Assembly: GCA_009782955.1 (NCBI GenBank)
Contig: WRIB01000020.1
Span: 1-42,781, forward strand
Length of the DNA stretch: 42,781 nt
Direction: 5' to 3'
Source: Treponema sp.
Lineage (GTDB): Bacteria > Spirochaetota > Spirochaetia > Treponematales > Breznakiellaceae
In this document: positions 21 through 7,385 of the stretch, piece after piece
Position numbering within the stretch: position 1 is the stretch's first letter
Layout of the letters: the number at the start of each line of letters is the position of its first letter
Made by a program: the position numbers and the translations under genes
Notes under the pieces: generated by a model
Databases searched by the model: none
Seen by the model: only the letters and a program-made list of their open reading frames with translations
What the model was told of the DNA's origin: nothing

Positions 21-49
21 TTGACTAAATCCTTGTAATATAATAACAT
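21..49 (+). promoter_or_regulatory. Candidate sigma-70 promoter in front of the inverted-repeat region
   Basis: A -35 TTGACT (21-26) and a -10 TAACAT (44-49) are separated by 17 nt. Transcription would start near 56 and run into the large inverted repeat at 103-404. No ORF of note follows on this strand before the convergent cysK, so the promoter, if real, would serve a non-coding RNA. It is a prediction from hexamer match and spacing only. Confidence 0.45.
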
Positions 50-102
50 AGTAACAGTTAGACACAAGAGATAACAGACAATCACAAGCAGTTCCATAAC
101 CC

Positions 103-404
103 CAATTTACCGCTGAGCCTGATATTTGATTAACTGAACAATTACCTGGAAAGGGGTGAGGCTGCGCTGCCAAAAAGTTCCTGGGGTTCCCTGCGAAACA
201 GATCACGGGGAAAAAGAAGTATTAAGCATAAAAGAGCCTGACTACTTAATGATTAACCTCATAAGGTTTTACAAAATACGGAATTATTTTTAAGTAGTCA
301 GGAAGCTGATTGAGCAGGATCGCCCAGAGTTTTTGGCAGTGCAGACTTATCCCTTTGCTGAATTTATTCGGAATAATTAAATTGTAAGGCTCAGCGATAA
401 ATTG
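103..404 (+). ncRNA. Putative structured RNA: long imperfect inverted repeat of about 300 nt
   Basis: The two halves of this gene-free stretch fold onto each other. 103-120 pairs with 387-404 (17 of 18 positions). 150-176 pairs with 330-356 (23 Watson-Crick pairs, 3 G-U, 1 mismatch, counted on the plus strand). 237-249 pairs perfectly with 290-302. The segments between (121-149 with 357-386, 177-205 with 303-329) are weakly complementary, and the left arm carries about 33 extra nt. Three wobble pairs in the longest stem exist only in the plus-strand transcript, which favours a plus-strand RNA. It lacks the signatures I know for tmRNA, RNase P RNA, SRP RNA or group II introns, and is longer than usual 6S RNA. 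An ancient inverted duplication is the alternative; a short open frame at 300-380 could be a coding remnant. Confidence 0.5.
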
Positions 405-419
405 TGATTTTAGGCTCTA

Positions 420-1346
420 TCAAAAAAGCGGTGTACTGAAATATCGTTCTGCCGTATCGGGCAATAGAGTTATAACCCGCTTTCCTTTACCGAGTTTTTT
501 TGCCATGCGCAAGGCGGTACACACATTGGAGCCGCCTGAAATACCGCACATCAGACCTTCCAGACGGGCTAGATCTTTTGCGGTTTGCAGTGCATCCCTG
601 TCACTTACAATATCAACTTTACTGTATATTTCAGTATTAAGATTTGGGGGAACAAGTCCGTCACCGATGCCCATTTGAACATGAGTTCCGATTTTCCCTC
701 CCAACAGGATTGCAGCGTTTTCAGGCTCCAGCGCCCAGATTTCAATGTCCGGATATTTTTCACGCAATACCGCACCAATACCGCTGATTGTTCCGCCGGT
801 TCCGATACCGGAACAAAAACCATGCAATGGTAAACCATTAAGTTGTTCGATTATTTCACGGCCTGTATGTTCACGGTGAACTGCAGGGTTGGCGGGATTC
901 TCAAATTGCTGAGGTACAAAGATTTTCGGGTTTTCCTTTGCCATTCTCAGGGCTGTTTGCAGACAATCTTCAATTACCTTGCCTATGTCTCCATCATCGT
1001 GTCTTAGTATAACTTCCGCACCGTATTGTTCAATTAACTTGCGGCGCTCACCGCTCACGGAATCGGGCATAATAACAACGGCTTTATAACCCCGCACTGC
1101 CGCAATAAGCGCAAGGCCAATGCCCTGATTACCGCTGGTTGGTTCGCAAATAATCGAATCAGGTTTTAACAACCCCAGTTTTTCTGCTTCAAGAATCATA
1201 TTGTAAGCAGTACGTGTTTTAACGGAACCGCCAACGTTTAAACCTTCAAATTTTACAAGAACTTCCGCATCGCCGGACCCCGCCATACGATTCAGGCGAA
1301 TAACAGGTGTATTACCAATGCTATCCAGAATATTCGAACAAATCAT
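420..1346 (-). CDS. cysK: Cysteine synthase (O-acetylserine sulfhydrylase), PLP-dependent
   Basis: Makes cysteine from O-acetylserine and sulfide in the cytoplasm. The 308-residue protein has the fold-type II PLP enzyme layout: the N-terminal IGNTP motif (about residues 10-14), the PLP lysine in the GGSVKTR segment (K43), a PTSGN loop that binds the substrate carboxylate, and the glycine-rich GTGGT phosphate-binding loop. The SGN loop reads SGNQG where SGNTG is usual. The start at 1346 is chosen because AAGGAG lies 7 nt upstream; the frame is open 22 codons further but those do not resemble the family. It lies 14 bp downstream of the GH57 gene and is probably cotranscribed. The sulfur-mobilising genes at 28887-33654 would use its product. 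Confidence 0.9.
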   Translation of the reverse strand: MICSNILDSIGNTPVIRLNRMAGSGDAEVLVKFEGLNVGGSVKTRTAYNMILEAEKLGLLKPDSIICEPTSGNQGIGLALIAAVRGYKAVVIMPDSVSGERRKLIEQYGAEVILRHDDGDIGKVIEDCLQTALRMAKENPKIFVPQQFENPANPAVHREHTGREIIEQLNGLPLHGFCSGIGTGGTISGIGAVLREKYPDIEIWALEPENAAILLGGKIGTHVQMGIGDGLVPPNLNTEIYSKVDIVSDRDALQTAKDLARLEGLMCGISGGSNVCTALRMAKKLGKGKRVITLLPDTAERYFSTPLF

Positions 1347-1360
1347 AATTATCTCCTTAA

Positions 1361-3316
1361 TTAATTTTTTCGTACTTTGGCAGAAACAGAAACAGTGATC
1401 CGGTTTTCCCACATATCACCGGGATTAAGAAAAAGCTGAAACACCGGAAGAAAACAGCGCGTTTGGCATGATTCTTCCAAATCTGCAAAATACAAATCGC
1501 AGGGGGTTTGGAAACCAACGTTAATAACAGCTCCATGTTTGGAACTCTGCTCTTCAAAAGAAAGGACCCGCTTTTTTATACCATTTTTATCGGAAGAACT
1601 TTCTTCTTCTCCCTGGCTCCTGCGAAAAAGAAGCTCCCCCCCTGCTAAAGCCAAATCAAAACGGGGCACAAAACAAAGTACTGTTTTTTCTTCTCCCATA
1701 TTGCTCAATTTATAGCAAAGATTGAGCGTGTTTTTTTCCAGGCTGTAGGTTTTTTGAATTTCGATAAAACCAAAAGGAATTCCCTTACGCGGAGAAAGAA
1801 CAAAAGAAGCTTTAAGCTTTGCCCTGTCTGCAGATAAAAGTTTGAATTCTTCGTTTCCGCAAAACCTGCTGTTTTCGGGAAAAACAGTATCGCCGGGGAA
1901 AGTGTATACGCTCGAAGAAGATTCTGCCGGCGGAATAAAATCGCCGGGAAAAAGCATATCAATAAAAGCACAGCGCCTGTCCGGAGGGGAACCTTCGCTC
2001 ATCTTCGTTCGCTCGGCGGAGTATACCGGAGGGGAACCATGTGAACTGTCGTTCGTAACGTTCACTTTTTTTCGATTGGCGGAGTCAGCAGAATCACCGG
2101 TAAACGAATCCAGATAATTCCAGCCTTTGGGAAGGTAATCCAATTCAAAAATAGCCGCCCCTTTTGTTCTTACATAACAATTTAGATTTTTATCATGAAA
2201 AAGGAATTCTTCCATACGGTCAAGGTCAAAATCAAAACTAAGCAACGAAGATTTAAACTCCTTTTCCCGAATTATCCGTTCAGATGCAAGAATTGCTTTT
2301 TGGGCATAGCGCCGTACGTCTTTATTGCCGATAAACGACAAGGTTTCCGCACCCTGAGCCTTCCACAGTTCTTCCCGGGCGCTGCGTTTCCGGGATTTGT
2401 CTCCGCGCAGCTGGTTAATAAGGTTATGGATAAAATGAATCCTTGCATAAAGTTCGTTGGCTTCCGGGTATCTGGCAAGGAACGAACGTGGTTGAGAACA
2501 GGAAGAATCCCCGGAAGCCGGGAAGTACAGCCGCGGAAGAAAAGTACTGGAACGGTATATCCTGCCGGGAGTAGTAAGCCCAAGGTTTACATTGCCGGAT
2601 TTATCTGCCAATGCAGTAACAAGCCCTTCGAAGAAGGATAGAATGCTTTCTTCGGCGTCTTCCTGCGGGAAATCGGGAAATACTGTTATAACAGCTTCTT
2701 TTCCGTCATCAGGGGTGATTTTTACTTTTTGCAAAATATCCCTGATGCCATCCTTTCCTATGCCTGCAAGTGAAGAAAAAACCGGAAACACAACAAGAAG
2801 TTTTCCCTGATCTTCGGTACATACCGGACCATAAAGGTTTTTTCCTTTACAGCCGGCGGCGGCAAACTGTTCTTCGCTTAAAAAGGTATAATCCATGCCG
2901 CATGCTGCAAGCATTCCTGCCAGAGACTGTTCCCATAACGAATAGGCCAGCATACAACCCTGGGGCTTCCGGCCGAAATTCTGCCTGATATAGGTGGTTA
3001 ACATCTCTATCTGACCTATTCTGTCTGCCGGGGGAAGGAGAGGCATTATAGGTTCATAAAAACCGCCTCCCAAAAGCTCAAGTTGTTTTCGGGCTGCCAT
3101 ATGCTTAATCAATAAAAAAAGCTCCGGTTTTTTTTGTTCCAAACGGCTAAAGAGAAAGCCTGAATAATGGAGTACCGCGGGGATTTTGGGGTATTGATTT
3201 AATACAGTAATAAAAGGCCTTAACCTGGTTTGGTATAATACTTCAAATTCTTCATCTGTTGCCGAAGGGAAAACATGTGCATGTGAACCCAGAATCAGGT
3301 TTACTTTTCCGGCCAT
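1361..3316 (-). CDS. GH57 family protein (4-alpha-glucanotransferase / alpha-amylase type), probably catalytically inactive
   Basis: The 651-residue length matches the Thermococcus-type GH57 4-alpha-glucanotransferases (about 650-660). The family motifs appear in order but eroded: motif 1 SHAHV (11-15) for HNHQP, motif 2 GGGFYEP (83-89), motif 3 around 121-129, and motif 4 DDGKEAV (203-209) for DDGEKFG. In motif 3 the usual WLTERVWE reads MLAYSLWE, so the nucleophile glutamate position (about E123 in the Thermococcus litoralis enzyme) is Tyr125. GH57 amylase-like proteins without catalytic residues are known, so a binding or regulatory role is possible. Residues about 400-460 contain a Ser/Pro-rich stretch encoded by repeated DNA (a 13-bp repeat at 1981 and 2026). 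It is the sixth gene of the run starting with rnfC, separated from rnfA by a palindrome next to its start. Confidence 0.75.
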   Translation of the reverse strand: MAGKVNLILGSHAHVFPSATDEEFEVLYQTRLRPFITVLNQYPKIPAVLHYSGFLFSRLEQKKPELFLLIKHMAARKQLELLGGGFYEPIMPLLPPADRIGQIEMLTTYIRQNFGRKPQGCMLAYSLWEQSLAGMLAACGMDYTFLSEEQFAAAGCKGKNLYGPVCTEDQGKLLVVFPVFSSLAGIGKDGIRDILQKVKITPDDGKEAVITVFPDFPQEDAEESILSFFEGLVTALADKSGNVNLGLTTPGRIYRSSTFLPRLYFPASGDSSCSQPRSFLARYPEANELYARIHFIHNLINQLRGDKSRKRSAREELWKAQGAETLSFIGNKDVRRYAQKAILASERIIREKEFKSSLLSFDFDLDRMEEFLFHDKNLNCYVRTKGAAIFELDYLPKGWNYLDSFTGDSADSANRKKVNVTNDSSHGSPPVYSAERTKMSEGSPPDRRCAFIDMLFPGDFIPPAESSSSVYTFPGDTVFPENSRFCGNEEFKLLSADRAKLKASFVLSPRKGIPFGFIEIQKTYSLEKNTLNLCYKLSNMGEEKTVLCFVPRFDLALAGGELLFRRSQGEEESSSDKNGIKKRVLSFEEQSSKHGAVINVGFQTPCDLYFADLEESCQTRCFLPVFQLFLNPGDMWENRITVSVSAKVRKN

Positions 3317-3376: not shown

Positions 3377-3961
3377 CTATAAAAATATTTTTAAAAATAG
3401 CACCGATGCAGCAGAAAAAACAAGAGACAAAAACCCCATGGAGATAAACAGTATTGGAGTTCCCCGCAGCCCATGAGGTATAGCTTCCAGAAATGAACGT
3501 TTTTGAATTTCTTTAATTATCAGGAAAGCCAGAAGGGCTCCCGCCGAAAAGGTTAAGGAAAGAAGAAAAGCATCTGCAAAAGAGAGGGCAAAGTGGAGTG
3601 TTAAGAATAACGCCGCCGCAGCCAGACCGTTATAGGATGAACCGGCAGAAAACAAACCAGGATTCTCATGCTGTTTTGTCAAAGGTACAGCAAAACGAAA
3701 AAACAGGACTTCCAATCCCATGCTTCCAAGGACTGATAAGGGAAAGATCAAAAAATAATCAAGTATTCCGCCGGTAAAAAACAAGATCCGCGCAAAGAGT
3801 ATCCACAGGAACAATGTGGAAACAAAAAGGACAACCCAGGGGTAGTAGAGCAGTATCGCCGGAGTTCGTTCGCGGAGTATCAGTTCCCTGACTCCCAGTG
3901 CAAAATTTAAAAAGAGGTTTAAAGACAGGGCCGCAAAAAAAACAAGTGCAAAAGCTGCCAT
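3377..3961 (-). CDS. rnfA: RnfA-like membrane subunit lacking the [2Fe-2S] cysteines
   Basis: A 194-residue, six-helix membrane protein. The C-terminal part (IKEIQKRSFLEAIPHGLRGTPI, then a Ser/Leu-rich helix) matches the conserved end of RnfA/RsxA/NqrE. In characterised RnfA two intramembrane cysteines hold a [2Fe-2S] cluster with RnfE. Here the first (normally GICPF) reads GVREL with Arg25, and the second (normally TNCAVLG) reads YNGLAAA with Gly112; no other cysteine is present in the protein. The stop-start junction with rnfE overlaps by one base (TAATG), so translation is coupled. It can still form the membrane core of an Rnf-like complex but not the known electron path. The symbol records homology, not function. 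Confidence 0.75.
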   Translation of the reverse strand: MAAFALVFFAALSLNLFLNFALGVRELILRERTPAILLYYPWVVLFVSTLFLWILFARILFFTGGILDYFLIFPLSVLGSMGLEVLFFRFAVPLTKQHENPGLFSAGSSYNGLAAAALFLTLHFALSFADAFLLSLTFSAGALLAFLIIKEIQKRSFLEAIPHGLRGTPILFISMGFLSLVFSAASVLFLKIFL

Positions 3962-4572
3962 TAATCATCCTCCGAACGTGTAATTTCATTTCTGAAATGC
4001 CGGTATACTGCAATTACATAACCGAGAATAATCAAGGCGCCCGACGAAGCCTGAAGAAAACGCAATGGCTCATTCTTTGCAAAACGGATAATGTCGAAGC
4101 CCGGAAAAGAAATGGAACCAAAACCCAATGGTTCCCGTACCAGAGAAAGGCCGAGAACAAGAACTCCAAGGATCAGGGCTTCTGCCATAGCCTGAGAAAT
4201 AACTTCACCCATATCATATTCAAGGGTTCTGTTGTAAATACCCGAAGCAATAAAGACAACCGGAACAAGAAAAACAAAGAACGAACTTTCCATTGCCATT
4301 ACAGGATTTAAAATCCAAAGAAGTATCAAAAATATTCCGGCTGCCAGGGAAGAAATAAATAGAAACACTGCATTTCTTCCCCATCGGGGAAAGTATTCGC
4401 CGCCCAATTTTGCAGCAGTCAAAGTAAAACCATAAACCCACACCAGGGCCAGGCTGCAAATGATCGCAAAAACAATACGTCCGGAAGCAACAATAAGCAG
4501 TGCGGCGCCGGTAAGAGAACCAAGCGGCGAATTTTTTCCCCAAAACAGGTGTGATTCCATTTGAACGTTCAC
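3961..4572 (-). CDS. rnfE: RnfE-like membrane subunit lacking the [2Fe-2S] cysteines
   Basis: A 203-residue integral membrane protein with about six helices that aligns by eye with RsxE/RnfE over its length, including the LREPLGFGS-like region (the usual LREIIGNGT). The paired cysteines that bind [2Fe-2S] in the family are replaced: the GLCPLLAV segment reads TGAALLIV (about residues 21-28), and the TNCIVVGRAE segment reads IASGIYNRTL (about 108-117). One unrelated cysteine (C39) is present in the next helix. It overlaps rnfG by 4 nt and rnfA by 1 nt. RnfA and RnfE are homologous inverted subunits, so loss of both sites in both proteins is unlikely to be sequencing error. Confidence 0.72.
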   Translation of the reverse strand: MNVQMESHLFWGKNSPLGSLTGAALLIVASGRIVFAIICSLALVWVYGFTLTAAKLGGEYFPRWGRNAVFLFISSLAAGIFLILLWILNPVMAMESSFFVFLVPVVFIASGIYNRTLEYDMGEVISQAMAEALILGVLVLGLSLVREPLGFGSISFPGFDIIRFAKNEPLRFLQASSGALIILGYVIAVYRHFRNEITRSEDD

Positions 4573-5030
4573 CGTAACACCCCTTTCTTCAAAGTCATGT
4601 TCCGCGCATTCCGTTCTATACGGTCTACATAAAAGCGATATACCGGCAAACGTAATTCATCGATAATCTGCCGGGCATTTTCGCTGAGTGGAATAATCGA
4701 TCTGACTTTGTCTTCGTTATCAACAAGGGCAACACATGCTGCTGCAATGCCGTTTTGCATTATGGAAAATACAAAAGCCCTGTCTGAAGAATTATTCAGC
4801 GCAAACCAGGAACCGCCCATAACAGAAACAGGGTTTCCCAAAAAACCGTATGGTTTATCTACAAGCCCGCCGCCAGCCAGGCCTGTAACGCCGCTTTGTG
4901 CAAGAGCTTTATTTACCCTTTGTGTTAATAACTTTGTCCGGTAAGACAAGGTAAAAAACCAAAGCAGAAAACCAATAACAAGTGCCGAACCAATCCAGGC
5001 AAGGCAAAGAAGTATATTCCGCCTTGTCAT
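4569..5030 (-). CDS. rnfG: Short RnfG-like periplasm-facing subunit without a flavinylation motif
   Basis: 153 residues, shorter than typical RnfG (about 180-210). It has one N-terminal membrane helix (residues about 8-28) followed by a periplasmic domain. Characterised RnfG carries FMN on a threonine in [S/T]GA[T/S] near the C-terminus; no such motif occurs here and the protein ends about where it should lie. Identity rests on position (rnfC-D-G-E-A order), size and topology rather than strong motif conservation, so the assignment is less certain than for rnfC or rnfD. It overlaps rnfD and rnfE by 4 nt each. Confidence 0.55.
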   Translation of the reverse strand: MTRRNILLCLAWIGSALVIGFLLWFFTLSYRTKLLTQRVNKALAQSGVTGLAGGGLVDKPYGFLGNPVSVMGGSWFALNNSSDRAFVFSIMQNGIAAACVALVDNEDKVRSIIPLSENARQIIDELRLPVYRFYVDRIERNARNMTLKKGVLR

Positions 5031-6079
5031 AATTGTTTCCTTTTTTCATAATACCAGGCATTTTCCAGCCTTCGTATCAAAGGAACCAGTGCATTACCCA
5101 AAAGAACAGCGGTAACCGTCCCGTAAGGATCAAGTCCCGGATAACGAAACAAAAAAGTAAAGACAGCACAGAGACTTATAAAAATTGTATTACCCGGCAT
5201 GGATTTAGGACTTGTTGCAGGATCGGTAACAAGAATAAAGGCCGCCGCCAGAGTACCGCCGGAAAACAGGGCAAAGATAATATCTCCTTCCCAAAAGGAA
5301 CCGCCAAAAGGCAAAGCGCCGAAAATCCGGATTAATATTGAATAAACAAAAATAAACACCGCCGGCAGCCAAAACCGAAAACATTGTGAAGAAGCTATTA
5401 AAATTGTTCCCAATAAAAGGAAAAACAGCCCGCGATCCGCAATAATCCCCGATCTGTTAGAAGAAAACAAGGTAAGATACCCGCTTGGCAATGAACTTCC
5501 CATAAATCGAAAGATCGTTTGGTTAAAAAAAGCGCTTAACTTGCTGTCCAGGAGGGTATTTGACCAGCCGTTGATCATAAGAAGCGCCAGTGGTGAACCC
5601 ATACTGTCTCTGAGACCTCCTTCAAGAGACGCCGACAGCCTCATAAGATGGTTGTCTTCAATACTGCGGTTAAATGCAACAGGCCAGGCGGAACGGATAA
5701 AAAGCCATGCGCCTGCGGCCGGGTTAACCCAATTGGATCCCAATCCGCCAAAACTATGCTTGAGTACAGCCATTGCAAAGATCCCTCCCAGAAATGCATA
5801 AAGGGGATTGAGTGTATTGGGAAGGAACAATGTAAGGATCAATGCTGAAGCTATTGCGCTGGAATCTTTTATGGAAAACCTCCGTTCGCCAAAATTGAAA
5901 AGGAGTTCTGTTCCTACCATCCCCAGAACAGCAGCTAAAGCAATAATCAGCGAATGCCCGGAATCACTTAAGGAAGATTCAAAAATTACCAATAAAGCGC
6001 ATACCGAAACAAGCCGCATTCTGAGCGCAGTAGAACGGGAAAGATTAATTTGCGGTTTTTGAAAAAGGCTCAGATCCAT
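5027..6079 (-). CDS. rnfD: RnfD-like membrane subunit lacking the FMN-attachment motif
   Basis: A 350-residue polytopic protein of the NqrB/RnfD family. The diagnostic segment FGGLGSNWVNPA (residues 110-121) is present, preceded by the LPNTLNPLY loop and helix characteristic of the family. Canonical RnfD binds FMN covalently at the threonine of D-x-x-[S/T]GATPL; the matching place reads DSMGSPL (158-164), two residues shorter and without threonine. The N-terminal SPH-type motif is also missing. It starts one base after the rnfC stop and overlaps rnfG by 4 nt. It should form the channel core of an Rnf-like complex; coupling to electron flow is doubtful. Confidence 0.78.
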   Translation of the reverse strand: MDLSLFQKPQINLSRSTALRMRLVSVCALLVIFESSLSDSGHSLIIALAAVLGMVGTELLFNFGERRFSIKDSSAIASALILTLFLPNTLNPLYAFLGGIFAMAVLKHSFGGLGSNWVNPAAGAWLFIRSAWPVAFNRSIEDNHLMRLSASLEGGLRDSMGSPLALLMINGWSNTLLDSKLSAFFNQTIFRFMGSSLPSGYLTLFSSNRSGIIADRGLFFLLLGTILIASSQCFRFWLPAVFIFVYSILIRIFGALPFGGSFWEGDIIFALFSGGTLAAAFILVTDPATSPKSMPGNTIFISLCAVFTFLFRYPGLDPYGTVTAVLLGNALVPLIRRLENAWYYEKRKQL

Positions 6080-6080
6080 G

Positions 6081-7385
6081 CTAGTTTCCTTTTAGAGCAG
6101 AACGAATAATACTGGTAGAAAGAGGAAGTCCCGAAGGACAAACTACTTCGCAGCAGCCGCATCCATGGCATTCGGCTGCCCTGCCGGTTTTGGCATCTCT
6201 GCTTTCCAAACCTTTCATATATTTATAAAGCGCTTCGGGATCCAAACCTACAGGACAAACGATCCGGCATTCACCGCAGCCAATACATTTATTCCGATAG
6301 TTGCTGCCCAACTGGCCTCCCAGAAAAGCAAAAATTGCAAAGCTGGTTTTAATTACCGGCTCGTCCAAATCTACAACAGTCCTCCCCAATAAAGGAGAAC
6401 CTGAACCGATACGCTTGGGCTTGTCAACATAACCCCCGCATTCTGCAAATATTTCCCCAATCCTTGTTCCAATCTGAACTTTCATTACCTGGGGCTTTTT
6501 TATTGCCGAACCTCCCACCGCTACATAACGGGAAAGGATGGGTTTTTTTAATTTTACAGCATCATGAATTGCCGCCAGGGTGGCAGGCCCCAATGCAAGG
6601 ATTGTTCCCAGTTCAATTCCTTCCTTTTTGGCAAAACGATTAAGCACCAGTTCCAGTTCTCTGCGGTTTCTTTGGGGGTACCTTGCTCCGGTAAGAACAA
6701 GCGATACAGGGAATTCCGATTTACCCATGGACTCCATAAGCGCCAGCGCCCGTTCCTTTTCTCCTCGTGAAAAAACCAGGACTATCCTTCCCATACGGCC
6801 GGCACGGGCAGCAATACGGCTTCCTTCGGCTACTGCCGCTAATCGTTCTTTAAGAAGCACATAATCTGCCGCCAGCCAGGGATCGTCAAAAACACATCGT
6901 ACAATCAGGCTAACCGGATCCTTGGCGGATCTGAGGGAATAAAACATGTCCGACACAGGTCTGCCCGAACCTTCCATTTCTACAATACCGTATTCGGCAA
7001 TAATCCTTTGAATTTCAAAAGAAGAAAGGCTCTGCCATGGAAAAATCTCCTCGTACCTGCCCAGTTTTTCAAAACTACCGTCGAGTTTTATTACCAGGGC
7101 ATCGTTGGTAAATCCCTCTGCCGTTTTCCAGGAAACAATCCGTACTACTCTTCCCGGTACAGTGGCATGGATATTGGCCGATCCCAATCCCTGACCCCGT
7201 CCAATAAGCATTCCTTCACTAACCCGATCACCCACGCTTACCACCGGATTCGCCCGGCTGCCTGTATGCTGAACCAGAGGAATTACAGAAAGGCCGGGAA
7301 GAAAGGCGGTAACACTGGAATTACGCGGAGGTACTGAAGATTCGGTATAACGTATCCCCCCGCGGAGGAATGAAGGAGTAATCAT
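6081..7385 (-). CDS. rnfC: RnfC-like iron-sulfur subunit, first gene of the Rnf-like operon
   Basis: 434 residues. The N-terminus has the RnfC start (FLRGGIRYTE), the QHTG segment and a lipoyl-like hairpin (VGDRVSEGMLIG, then IHATVPGRV at 72-80). The C-terminus holds two intact CxxCxxCxxxCP motifs (C367, C370, C373, C377; C406, C409, C412, C416) for two [4Fe-4S] clusters. The FMN/NADH domain is altered: GIVGLGGAGFPT of the family reads GIVEMEGSGRPV (133-144), and the following AECEP motif reads VFDDP (165-169). NADH oxidation by this subunit is therefore doubtful, while electron transfer through the two clusters stays possible. No Shine-Dalgarno precedes the ATG at 7385; a -10-like element lies 13 nt upstream. 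Confidence 0.85.
   Translation of the reverse strand: MITPSFLRGGIRYTESSVPPRNSSVTAFLPGLSVIPLVQHTGSRANPVVSVGDRVSEGMLIGRGQGLGSANIHATVPGRVVRIVSWKTAEGFTNDALVIKLDGSFEKLGRYEEIFPWQSLSSFEIQRIIAEYGIVEMEGSGRPVSDMFYSLRSAKDPVSLIVRCVFDDPWLAADYVLLKERLAAVAEGSRIAARAGRMGRIVLVFSRGEKERALALMESMGKSEFPVSLVLTGARYPQRNRRELELVLNRFAKKEGIELGTILALGPATLAAIHDAVKLKKPILSRYVAVGGSAIKKPQVMKVQIGTRIGEIFAECGGYVDKPKRIGSGSPLLGRTVVDLDEPVIKTSFAIFAFLGGQLGSNYRNKCIGCGECRIVCPVGLDPEALYKYMKGLESRDAKTGRAAECHGCGCCEVVCPSGLPLSTSIIRSALKGN

What the first reader, a model, noticed from the sequence alone, without database searches (positions are those of the whole stretch)
21..404. Promoter plus 300-nt long-hairpin RNA candidate
Three separate paired segments in nested order (103-120/387-404, 150-176/330-356, 237-249/290-302) build one long rod. 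In the 27-nt stem 26 positions can pair, with three G-U pairs only in the plus-strand RNA. A sigma-70-like promoter sits just upstream. It does not match RNAs I know.
Basis: partly seen in the sequence, partly recalled or inferred. Interest (0 to 1): 0.62.

Follow-up and report, generated by a model that had tools for sequence, protein, structure and literature searches.

The report
Dispersed long-hairpin element of termite-gut spirochetes
The hairpin is real, but it is one copy of a repeated, self-folding DNA element scattered through the genomes of treponemes related to termite-gut species, and its folded shape has been kept by evolution while its sequence changed, so something probably recognises the folded strand.

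Summary
Window 98-411 (+) folds into one rod (RNA -126 kcal/mol, z -8.4). It is not a single-copy RNA gene. It belongs to a dispersed repeat family: 14 full-length copies in this genome, 16 in G004 and 3 in G001, with hits in 38 of 200 genomes of the same family but none outside it in an order-wide sample. Copies share an apex: three short helices with conserved internal loops and a bulged A, a ~35-nt one-sided bubble and a variable hairpin, about 175 nt in all. Covariation is overwhelming in two independent alignments (18 of 31 pairs doubly changed; 24 of 30), and plus-strand rods keep G-U over A-C mismatches 241:154. The outer rod differs between genera, yet each copy's arms pair. Copies sit between unrelated genes with no recurrent partner. 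At one shared site two sister species hold different copies. No Rfam, reverse transcriptase, RAYT, integron, phage or plasmid link was found. The promoter lies outside the element. Best reading: a non-autonomous, MITE-like foldback element whose folded plus strand is under selection, probably as the form a trans-acting factor recognises. Mobiliser unknown.

The parts
98..411 (+). whole foldback element (one copy of the family); ends where similarity to other copies with unrelated flanks stops
   Evidence: G000:C73 and G004:C67, C111, C9 copies all match from 98 to 410-411
98..127 (+). outer terminal arm, left (AACCCCAATTTACCGCTGAGCC...), family terminal inverted repeat
   Evidence: 34 places in G000 with at most 2 mismatches to AATTTACCGCTGAGCC, 0 for the reversed control
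380..409 (+). outer terminal arm, right (inverse of the left)
150..176 (+). inner rod arm, left
330..356 (+). inner rod arm, right; three G-U pairs on the plus strand
166..341 (+). conserved core used for covariance models R1/R2 (about 175 nt in full-length copies)
181..201 (+). apex motif, 5' strand: CTGGG-gttc-CCTGC-ga-AACAG, helices 1-3
306..327 (+). apex motif, 3' strand: CTG(a)TT-ga-GCAGG-atcg-CCCAG
202..236 (+). one-sided 35-nt A-rich bubble starting at the conserved bulged A
   Evidence: alignments A1, A4
237..302 (+). terminal hairpin; sequence freely variable, pairing kept (16 of 16 pairs with double changes)
   Evidence: helix 5
21..49 (+). sigma-70-like promoter match; outside the element, not part of the family
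   Evidence: flanks differ between copies
420..1412 (-). neighbouring gene, cysteine-synthase-like by sequence, pointing at the element; its stop codon lies about 9 nt from the element's end
   Evidence: identity from reading the sequence

Best explanation
The feature is one copy of a dispersed, non-autonomous foldback (MITE-like) repeat family of one treponeme family (termite-gut relatives). SHOWN: the element is repeated, mostly intergenic, palindromic over about 314 nt, and has an apex whose secondary structure and length are conserved by compensatory change across genera while the outer rods diverged beyond recognition; the same outer arms also occur with another apex or with none; element content at a site can differ between sister species. 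INFERRED: selection acts on the folded single plus strand (RNA transcript or single-stranded DNA), most likely because a trans-acting factor encoded elsewhere recognises the apex and spreads or exchanges copies, so only copies that fold correctly leave descendants. NOT SHOWN: transcription, the factor, and the transposition chemistry.
For: Repetition with unrelated flanks: 14, 16 and 3 full-length copies in G000, G004 and G001, the closest 93-96% identical at different sites. Covariation: MAFFT alignment not fitted to the model, 18 of 31 pairs with double changes, 0 of 500 shuffles as high, slid controls 4-8; 48 model-aligned copies, 374 doubly changed cells against 129.5 shuffled and 46-61 slid; de novo fold of 16 copies from other genomes of the family recovers the same architecture, 24 of 30 pairs doubly changed. 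Core length 173-177 nt in ten divergent copies. Strand asymmetry: G-U over A-C 241:154 in the rods (p 1.4e-5; 37 copies against 13). Lineage-specific homogeneous subfamilies with their own rods in G200, G010, G185 and G023 point to repeated amplification. No recurrent neighbour gene: at most 2 of 98 flanking proteins share a Pfam family, so any factor acts in trans. At a site with 89% identical coding flank, the G000 copy is 75% identical to the G004 copy but 96% to G000 copies elsewhere.
Against: No autonomous relative or transposase with these ends was found. No consistent target-site duplication (TA at one or both ends of some copies only). The G-U excess is counted on related copies, so its p value is optimistic, and it does not separate RNA from single-stranded DNA. 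The site-exchange case rests on a contig that begins inside the element, so an assembly switch is possible. Some copies are old: an orthologous pair is 98% identical between G000 and G004, and at the cysK site G004 keeps only the last ~17 bp of the arm.
Confidence: 0.55

Rival explanations
1. Ordinary DNA-transposase MITE: an IS transposase recognises only the terminal repeats; the long palindrome and its pairing are kept by palindrome conversion (template switching, gene conversion between arms), not by a function of the folded strand.
For: Terminal repeats shared by elements with different interiors; size, intergenic location and occasional TA ends fit the description of bacterial MITEs in PMC10969869 and PMC2229807; apex-less copies with only the ends exist (L149, L150, L152).
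Against: The apex keeps conserved unpaired nucleotides (internal loops, bulged A, 35-nt one-sided bubble) at fixed spacing across genera, which arm-to-arm conversion cannot explain; the plus strand is favoured; terminal repeats are not shared between genera although the apex is.
Confidence: 0.22
2. Domesticated RNA element: each copy is a transcribed regulatory or 3'-end element for its neighbours (RNA stability, RNase III substrate, termination).
For: The 3' end of the element abuts the stop codon of an oppositely oriented gene: 17 of 27 such cases lie 50-83 nt from the core, i.e. about at the element's end. The single-strand structure is conserved. Bacterial MITE transcripts such as NEMIS are known RNase III substrates (PMC10969869, PMC2229807).
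Against: Neighbours are unrelated, mostly housekeeping genes; all four orientation classes occur (12 convergent, 12 divergent, 15 tandem); elements are lost or exchanged at a site between sister species; no terminator was found.
Confidence: 0.18
3. Stand-alone non-coding RNA gene with its own promoter, 6S-like.
For: Promoter-like 21-49; rod with a central bubble.
Against: No 6S or other relevant Rfam match even at E up to 10; tens of copies per genome; the promoter is outside the repeat and not shared.
Confidence: 0.02
4. Integron attC-type recombination sites or cassette array (folded single-strand sites between toxin-antitoxin cassettes, as in L127).
For: L127 has several copies about 1 kb apart with toxin-antitoxin-like pairs between them.
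Against: Integron integrase (TIGR02249 over cut-off) only in G026 and G032, neither a carrier, and in none of the carriers tested; most copies are isolated next to housekeeping genes; about 300 nt with a conserved apex instead of R/L boxes.
Confidence: 0.01
5. Retroelement or REP-type system: spread by a reverse transcriptase or a RAYT (Y1 transposase).
For: A few carriers hold DGR-type RTs, two with a copy nearby; about half of the carriers tested hold a Y1_Tnp gene.
Against: RVT_1 in only 7 of 27 genomes; no copy within 1.5 kb of any of 12 RAYT loci; G010 (95% complete, at least 11 copies) has neither.
Confidence: 0.02

Closest known systems
Bacterial MITEs / foldback repeats (Correia-NEMIS, ERIC, RUP, CIR; PMC10969869, PMC2229807)
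   Same: Non-coding, 50-500 bp, palindromic, dispersed in intergenic DNA, shared ends with variable interiors, stable stem-loop when transcribed, shrunken copies common; CIR repeats also have phylogenetically conserved RNA folding
   Different: Apex secondary structure with unpaired conserved nucleotides is held by covariation across genera while the terminal repeats are not; no TSD demonstrated; no matching IS; modular apexes on one chassis
REP/BIME with RAYT
   Same: Dispersed intergenic palindromes, often in composite pairs, single-strand recognition plausible
   Different: Several times longer, copies not next to RAYT genes, some carriers have no RAYT
HEARO and other structured RNAs linked to mobile elements (own knowledge)
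   Same: About 300-nt structured RNA found in many copies, many of them without a protein gene
   Different: No Rfam match; long symmetric terminal arms; no recurrent nuclease gene among neighbours
6S RNA (RF00013)
   Same: Rod with a one-sided bubble
   Different: No match at E up to 10; multicopy

Membership tests
MITE (bacterial) | 50-500 bp, no protein gene | tested here: met
   314 nt; the longest ORF of 40 aa or more inside is 45 aa and spans the hairpin
MITE (bacterial) | terminal inverted repeats shared by copies | tested here: met
   within one genus; other genera have their own
MITE (bacterial) | target-site duplication / TA termini | tested here: inconclusive
   TA at both ends in L042 and L064, at one end in several, absent in others; no longer duplication seen
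MITE (bacterial) | autonomous IS with the same ends | tested here: inconclusive
   None at 20 terminal-repeat loci of G000, but contigs break at these repeats
MITE (bacterial) | multicopy, intergenic | tested here: met
REP/RAYT | RAYT gene flanked by the repeats | tested here: not met
Integron attC | IntI present in carriers | tested here: not met
Retron / DGR / group II | reverse transcriptase in carriers, adjacent | tested here: not met
6S RNA | covariance model match | tested here: not met
Any Rfam family | match at the gathering score | tested here: not met
   (only 6A RNA and a tRNA, outside the elements)
Expressed ncRNA | transcript from the plus strand | not testable with these tools
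   no transcriptome available

The most novel reading that the evidence does not exclude
A new class of mobile element that spreads through a folded single strand (RNA or single-stranded DNA) recognised at a conserved apex by an as yet unknown trans-acting enzyme, with genomic slots whose contents are exchanged between copies and with interchangeable apex modules on a common palindromic chassis.
Probability: 0.2. Interest if true: 0.82.

Novelty: new variant of a known kind. Interest (0 to 1): 0.58.

Why it matters
Bacterial foldback repeats are usually read as decayed DNA transposons. A family whose ends diverge freely while an internal single-strand structure is kept by compensatory change in several genera implies selection on the folded strand, and makes the old question of how such repeats move testable. 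It also adds an undescribed covarying structured family, up to a dozen or more copies per genome, absent from Rfam, that breaks assemblies of these genomes and will confuse ncRNA annotation.

Tried and rejected
Rfam at the gathering score and at E up to 10: nothing relevant. RVT_1: few carriers; the RTs are DGR type; two nearby copies judged chance. RAYT: no adjacency. Integron integrase: over cut-off only in non-carriers. Pattern scans: of 19 genome contigs records the 6 Treponema ones are the G004 MAG; the 13 non-Treponema records and 14 viral contigs score nothing with R2; a further viral hit (L274) was not tested. BLAST against phages and plasmids: none. Terminal-repeat scan of viral contigs: none. 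Empty-site comparison of the window site: G004 lacks the element but keeps the last ~17 bp of its arm, so this is an old insertion, not a clean empty site. Other flanks: one site shows a shrunken remnant, one a chimeric element at a contig end. Gene context: no recurrent partner. The phylum-wide search failed on the server.

Full report
OBSERVATION. The three nested pairings are present as described and the plus strand folds far better than shuffled sequence (z -8.4; minus strand -7.3). The promoter match at 21-49 is real but weak: 9 of 12 matches, 7 sites found in 1.5 kb against 3.1 expected.

IT IS A REPEAT. The window is contig C20 of genome G000. The element matches many places in G000 and in the sister genome G004. 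Copies with unrelated flanks begin and end at window 98 and 410-411. The promoter is therefore outside the repeated unit. A covariance model of ten cores (R1) finds 14 full-length copies in G000, 16 in G004 and 3 in G001 at E of 1e-9 or better. G002 and G003 of the same genus have none with R1, though a wider model finds one in G003. In the family, 38 of 200 genomes have hits, mainly in one other genus, g71. With R2 over the order, 20 of 197 genomes have hits, all in this family. That the family is the termite-gut treponemes is inferred.

ANATOMY. From outside in: a terminal arm of about 22 nt that is constant within the genus; a rod; then an apex made of helix 1 (CTGGG/CCCAG), an internal loop with TTC on the 5' side, helix 2 (CCTGC/GCAGG), a small internal loop (GA/GA here), helix 3 (AACAG/CTGaTT) with a bulged A, a one-sided bubble of about 35 A-rich nucleotides, and a terminal hairpin of free sequence. 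In ten divergent cores the length stays 173-177 nt. Some copies in other genera lack bubble and hairpin but keep helices 1-3 (L110, L129, L130).

SELECTION ON THE FOLD. In a plain MAFFT alignment of ten g1 copies, 18 of 31 pairs show double changes, with no shuffle of 500 as high and slid controls far lower. In 48 model-aligned copies it is 30 of 33 pairs, with 374 doubly changed cells against 129.5 shuffled and 46-61 slid; that alignment leans towards the model. A separate MAFFT alignment of 16 copies from other genomes, folded de novo, gives the same architecture with 24 of 30 pairs doubly changed. In the rods outside the core, G-U outnumbers A-C on the plus strand 241:154. Without strand-specific selection these should be equal. 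Copies are related, so the p value (1.4e-5) is optimistic; for g1 alone it is 114:63 and for the rest 127:91. G-T wobble in single-stranded DNA would behave in the same way, so RNA and ssDNA are not separated.

MODULARITY. In G000 the same outer arms enclose at least three kinds of interior: the R1 apex, a second conserved palindromic core (type II: L151, L158, L161, and as ~225-bp elements in G001: L060, L061, L067-L069), or almost nothing (L149, L150, L152). Several R1 copies follow a type II element at a short linker, so composites occur. The window copy shows no type II element in its 97 nt of upstream sequence.

TURNOVER. In G004 the place next to cysK has lost the element but keeps about the last 17 bp of its arm. 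A second site in G004 shows a shrunken remnant. Next to a fructose-bisphosphate aldolase gene (flank 89% identical), G000 has a copy 96% identical to the window copy, while the G004 copy at that site is only 75% identical to the G000 one. Another orthologous pair is 98% identical. So copies can be replaced at a site, with the caution that the G000 contig begins inside the element.

CONTEXT. The 98 flanking proteins match 80 Pfam families, none of them matched by more than two proteins. Orientation classes are mixed. Where an oppositely oriented gene points at the 3' end of the element, its stop codon usually lies right at the element's end (17 of 27 cases).

PARTNER. No reverse transcriptase, RAYT, integron integrase, phage or plasmid goes with the element. 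The 20 terminal-repeat loci of G000 that were read showed no transposase between matching ends, but contigs break at these repeats, so an autonomous relative could be missed.

CONCLUSION. Shown: a dispersed foldback repeat family with a covarying apex. Inferred: selection on the folded plus strand, most simply because a trans-acting factor recognises it when copies are spread or exchanged. It works like a MITE. Membership in the MITE kind is met for size, ends and dispersal, and inconclusive for target duplication and autonomous parent. It differs from described bacterial MITEs in that the internal single-strand structure, not the ends, is what is conserved between genera; phylogenetically conserved RNA folding has been described for CIR repeats (PMC2229807), so the kind is not wholly new.

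Noticed in passing
L151, L158, L161 (G000); L060, L061, L067, L068, L069 (G001): Second palindromic core (GGCCGGACTGAACAC...GACGGACGCTTTGGCGTCGC...) on the same terminal arms, also strongly folding and without an Rfam match
   Followed up: partly
G026:C88:2892-3845 and G032:C1:1926820-1927779 (L275, L276): Full-length integron integrases over the curated cut-off in two genomes of this family, although PMC3607928 found no integrons in the termite treponemes then sequenced
   Followed up: no
L127 (G179:C2:4000-14500): Five copies of the element in 3 kb interleaved with toxin-antitoxin-like gene pairs
   Followed up: partly
L140, L141, L142, L144: Diversity-generating retroelement-type reverse transcriptases, some with Avd-like and FGE/lectin-type genes; the one in G000 is cut at a contig end
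   Followed up: no
L129:1227-1277 (-): 6A RNA (RF02925) match in a g71 genome
   Followed up: no
G010 copies L243-L253: In this genome the bubble/hairpin part is replaced by a strongly conserved C-rich stretch (CCCGCAATCTTCCATCATTCCCGTCAACAAAGGCCTGAAACG) of unknown meaning
   Followed up: no
L131 (G198:C104): A pair of element copies in opposite orientation occurs twice, about 1.5 kb apart, with a restriction-nuclease-like gene between the pairs
   Followed up: no
window 3377-7385 (-): Genes resembling an Rnf complex operon (RnfA, E, G, D, C by sequence reading)
   Followed up: no
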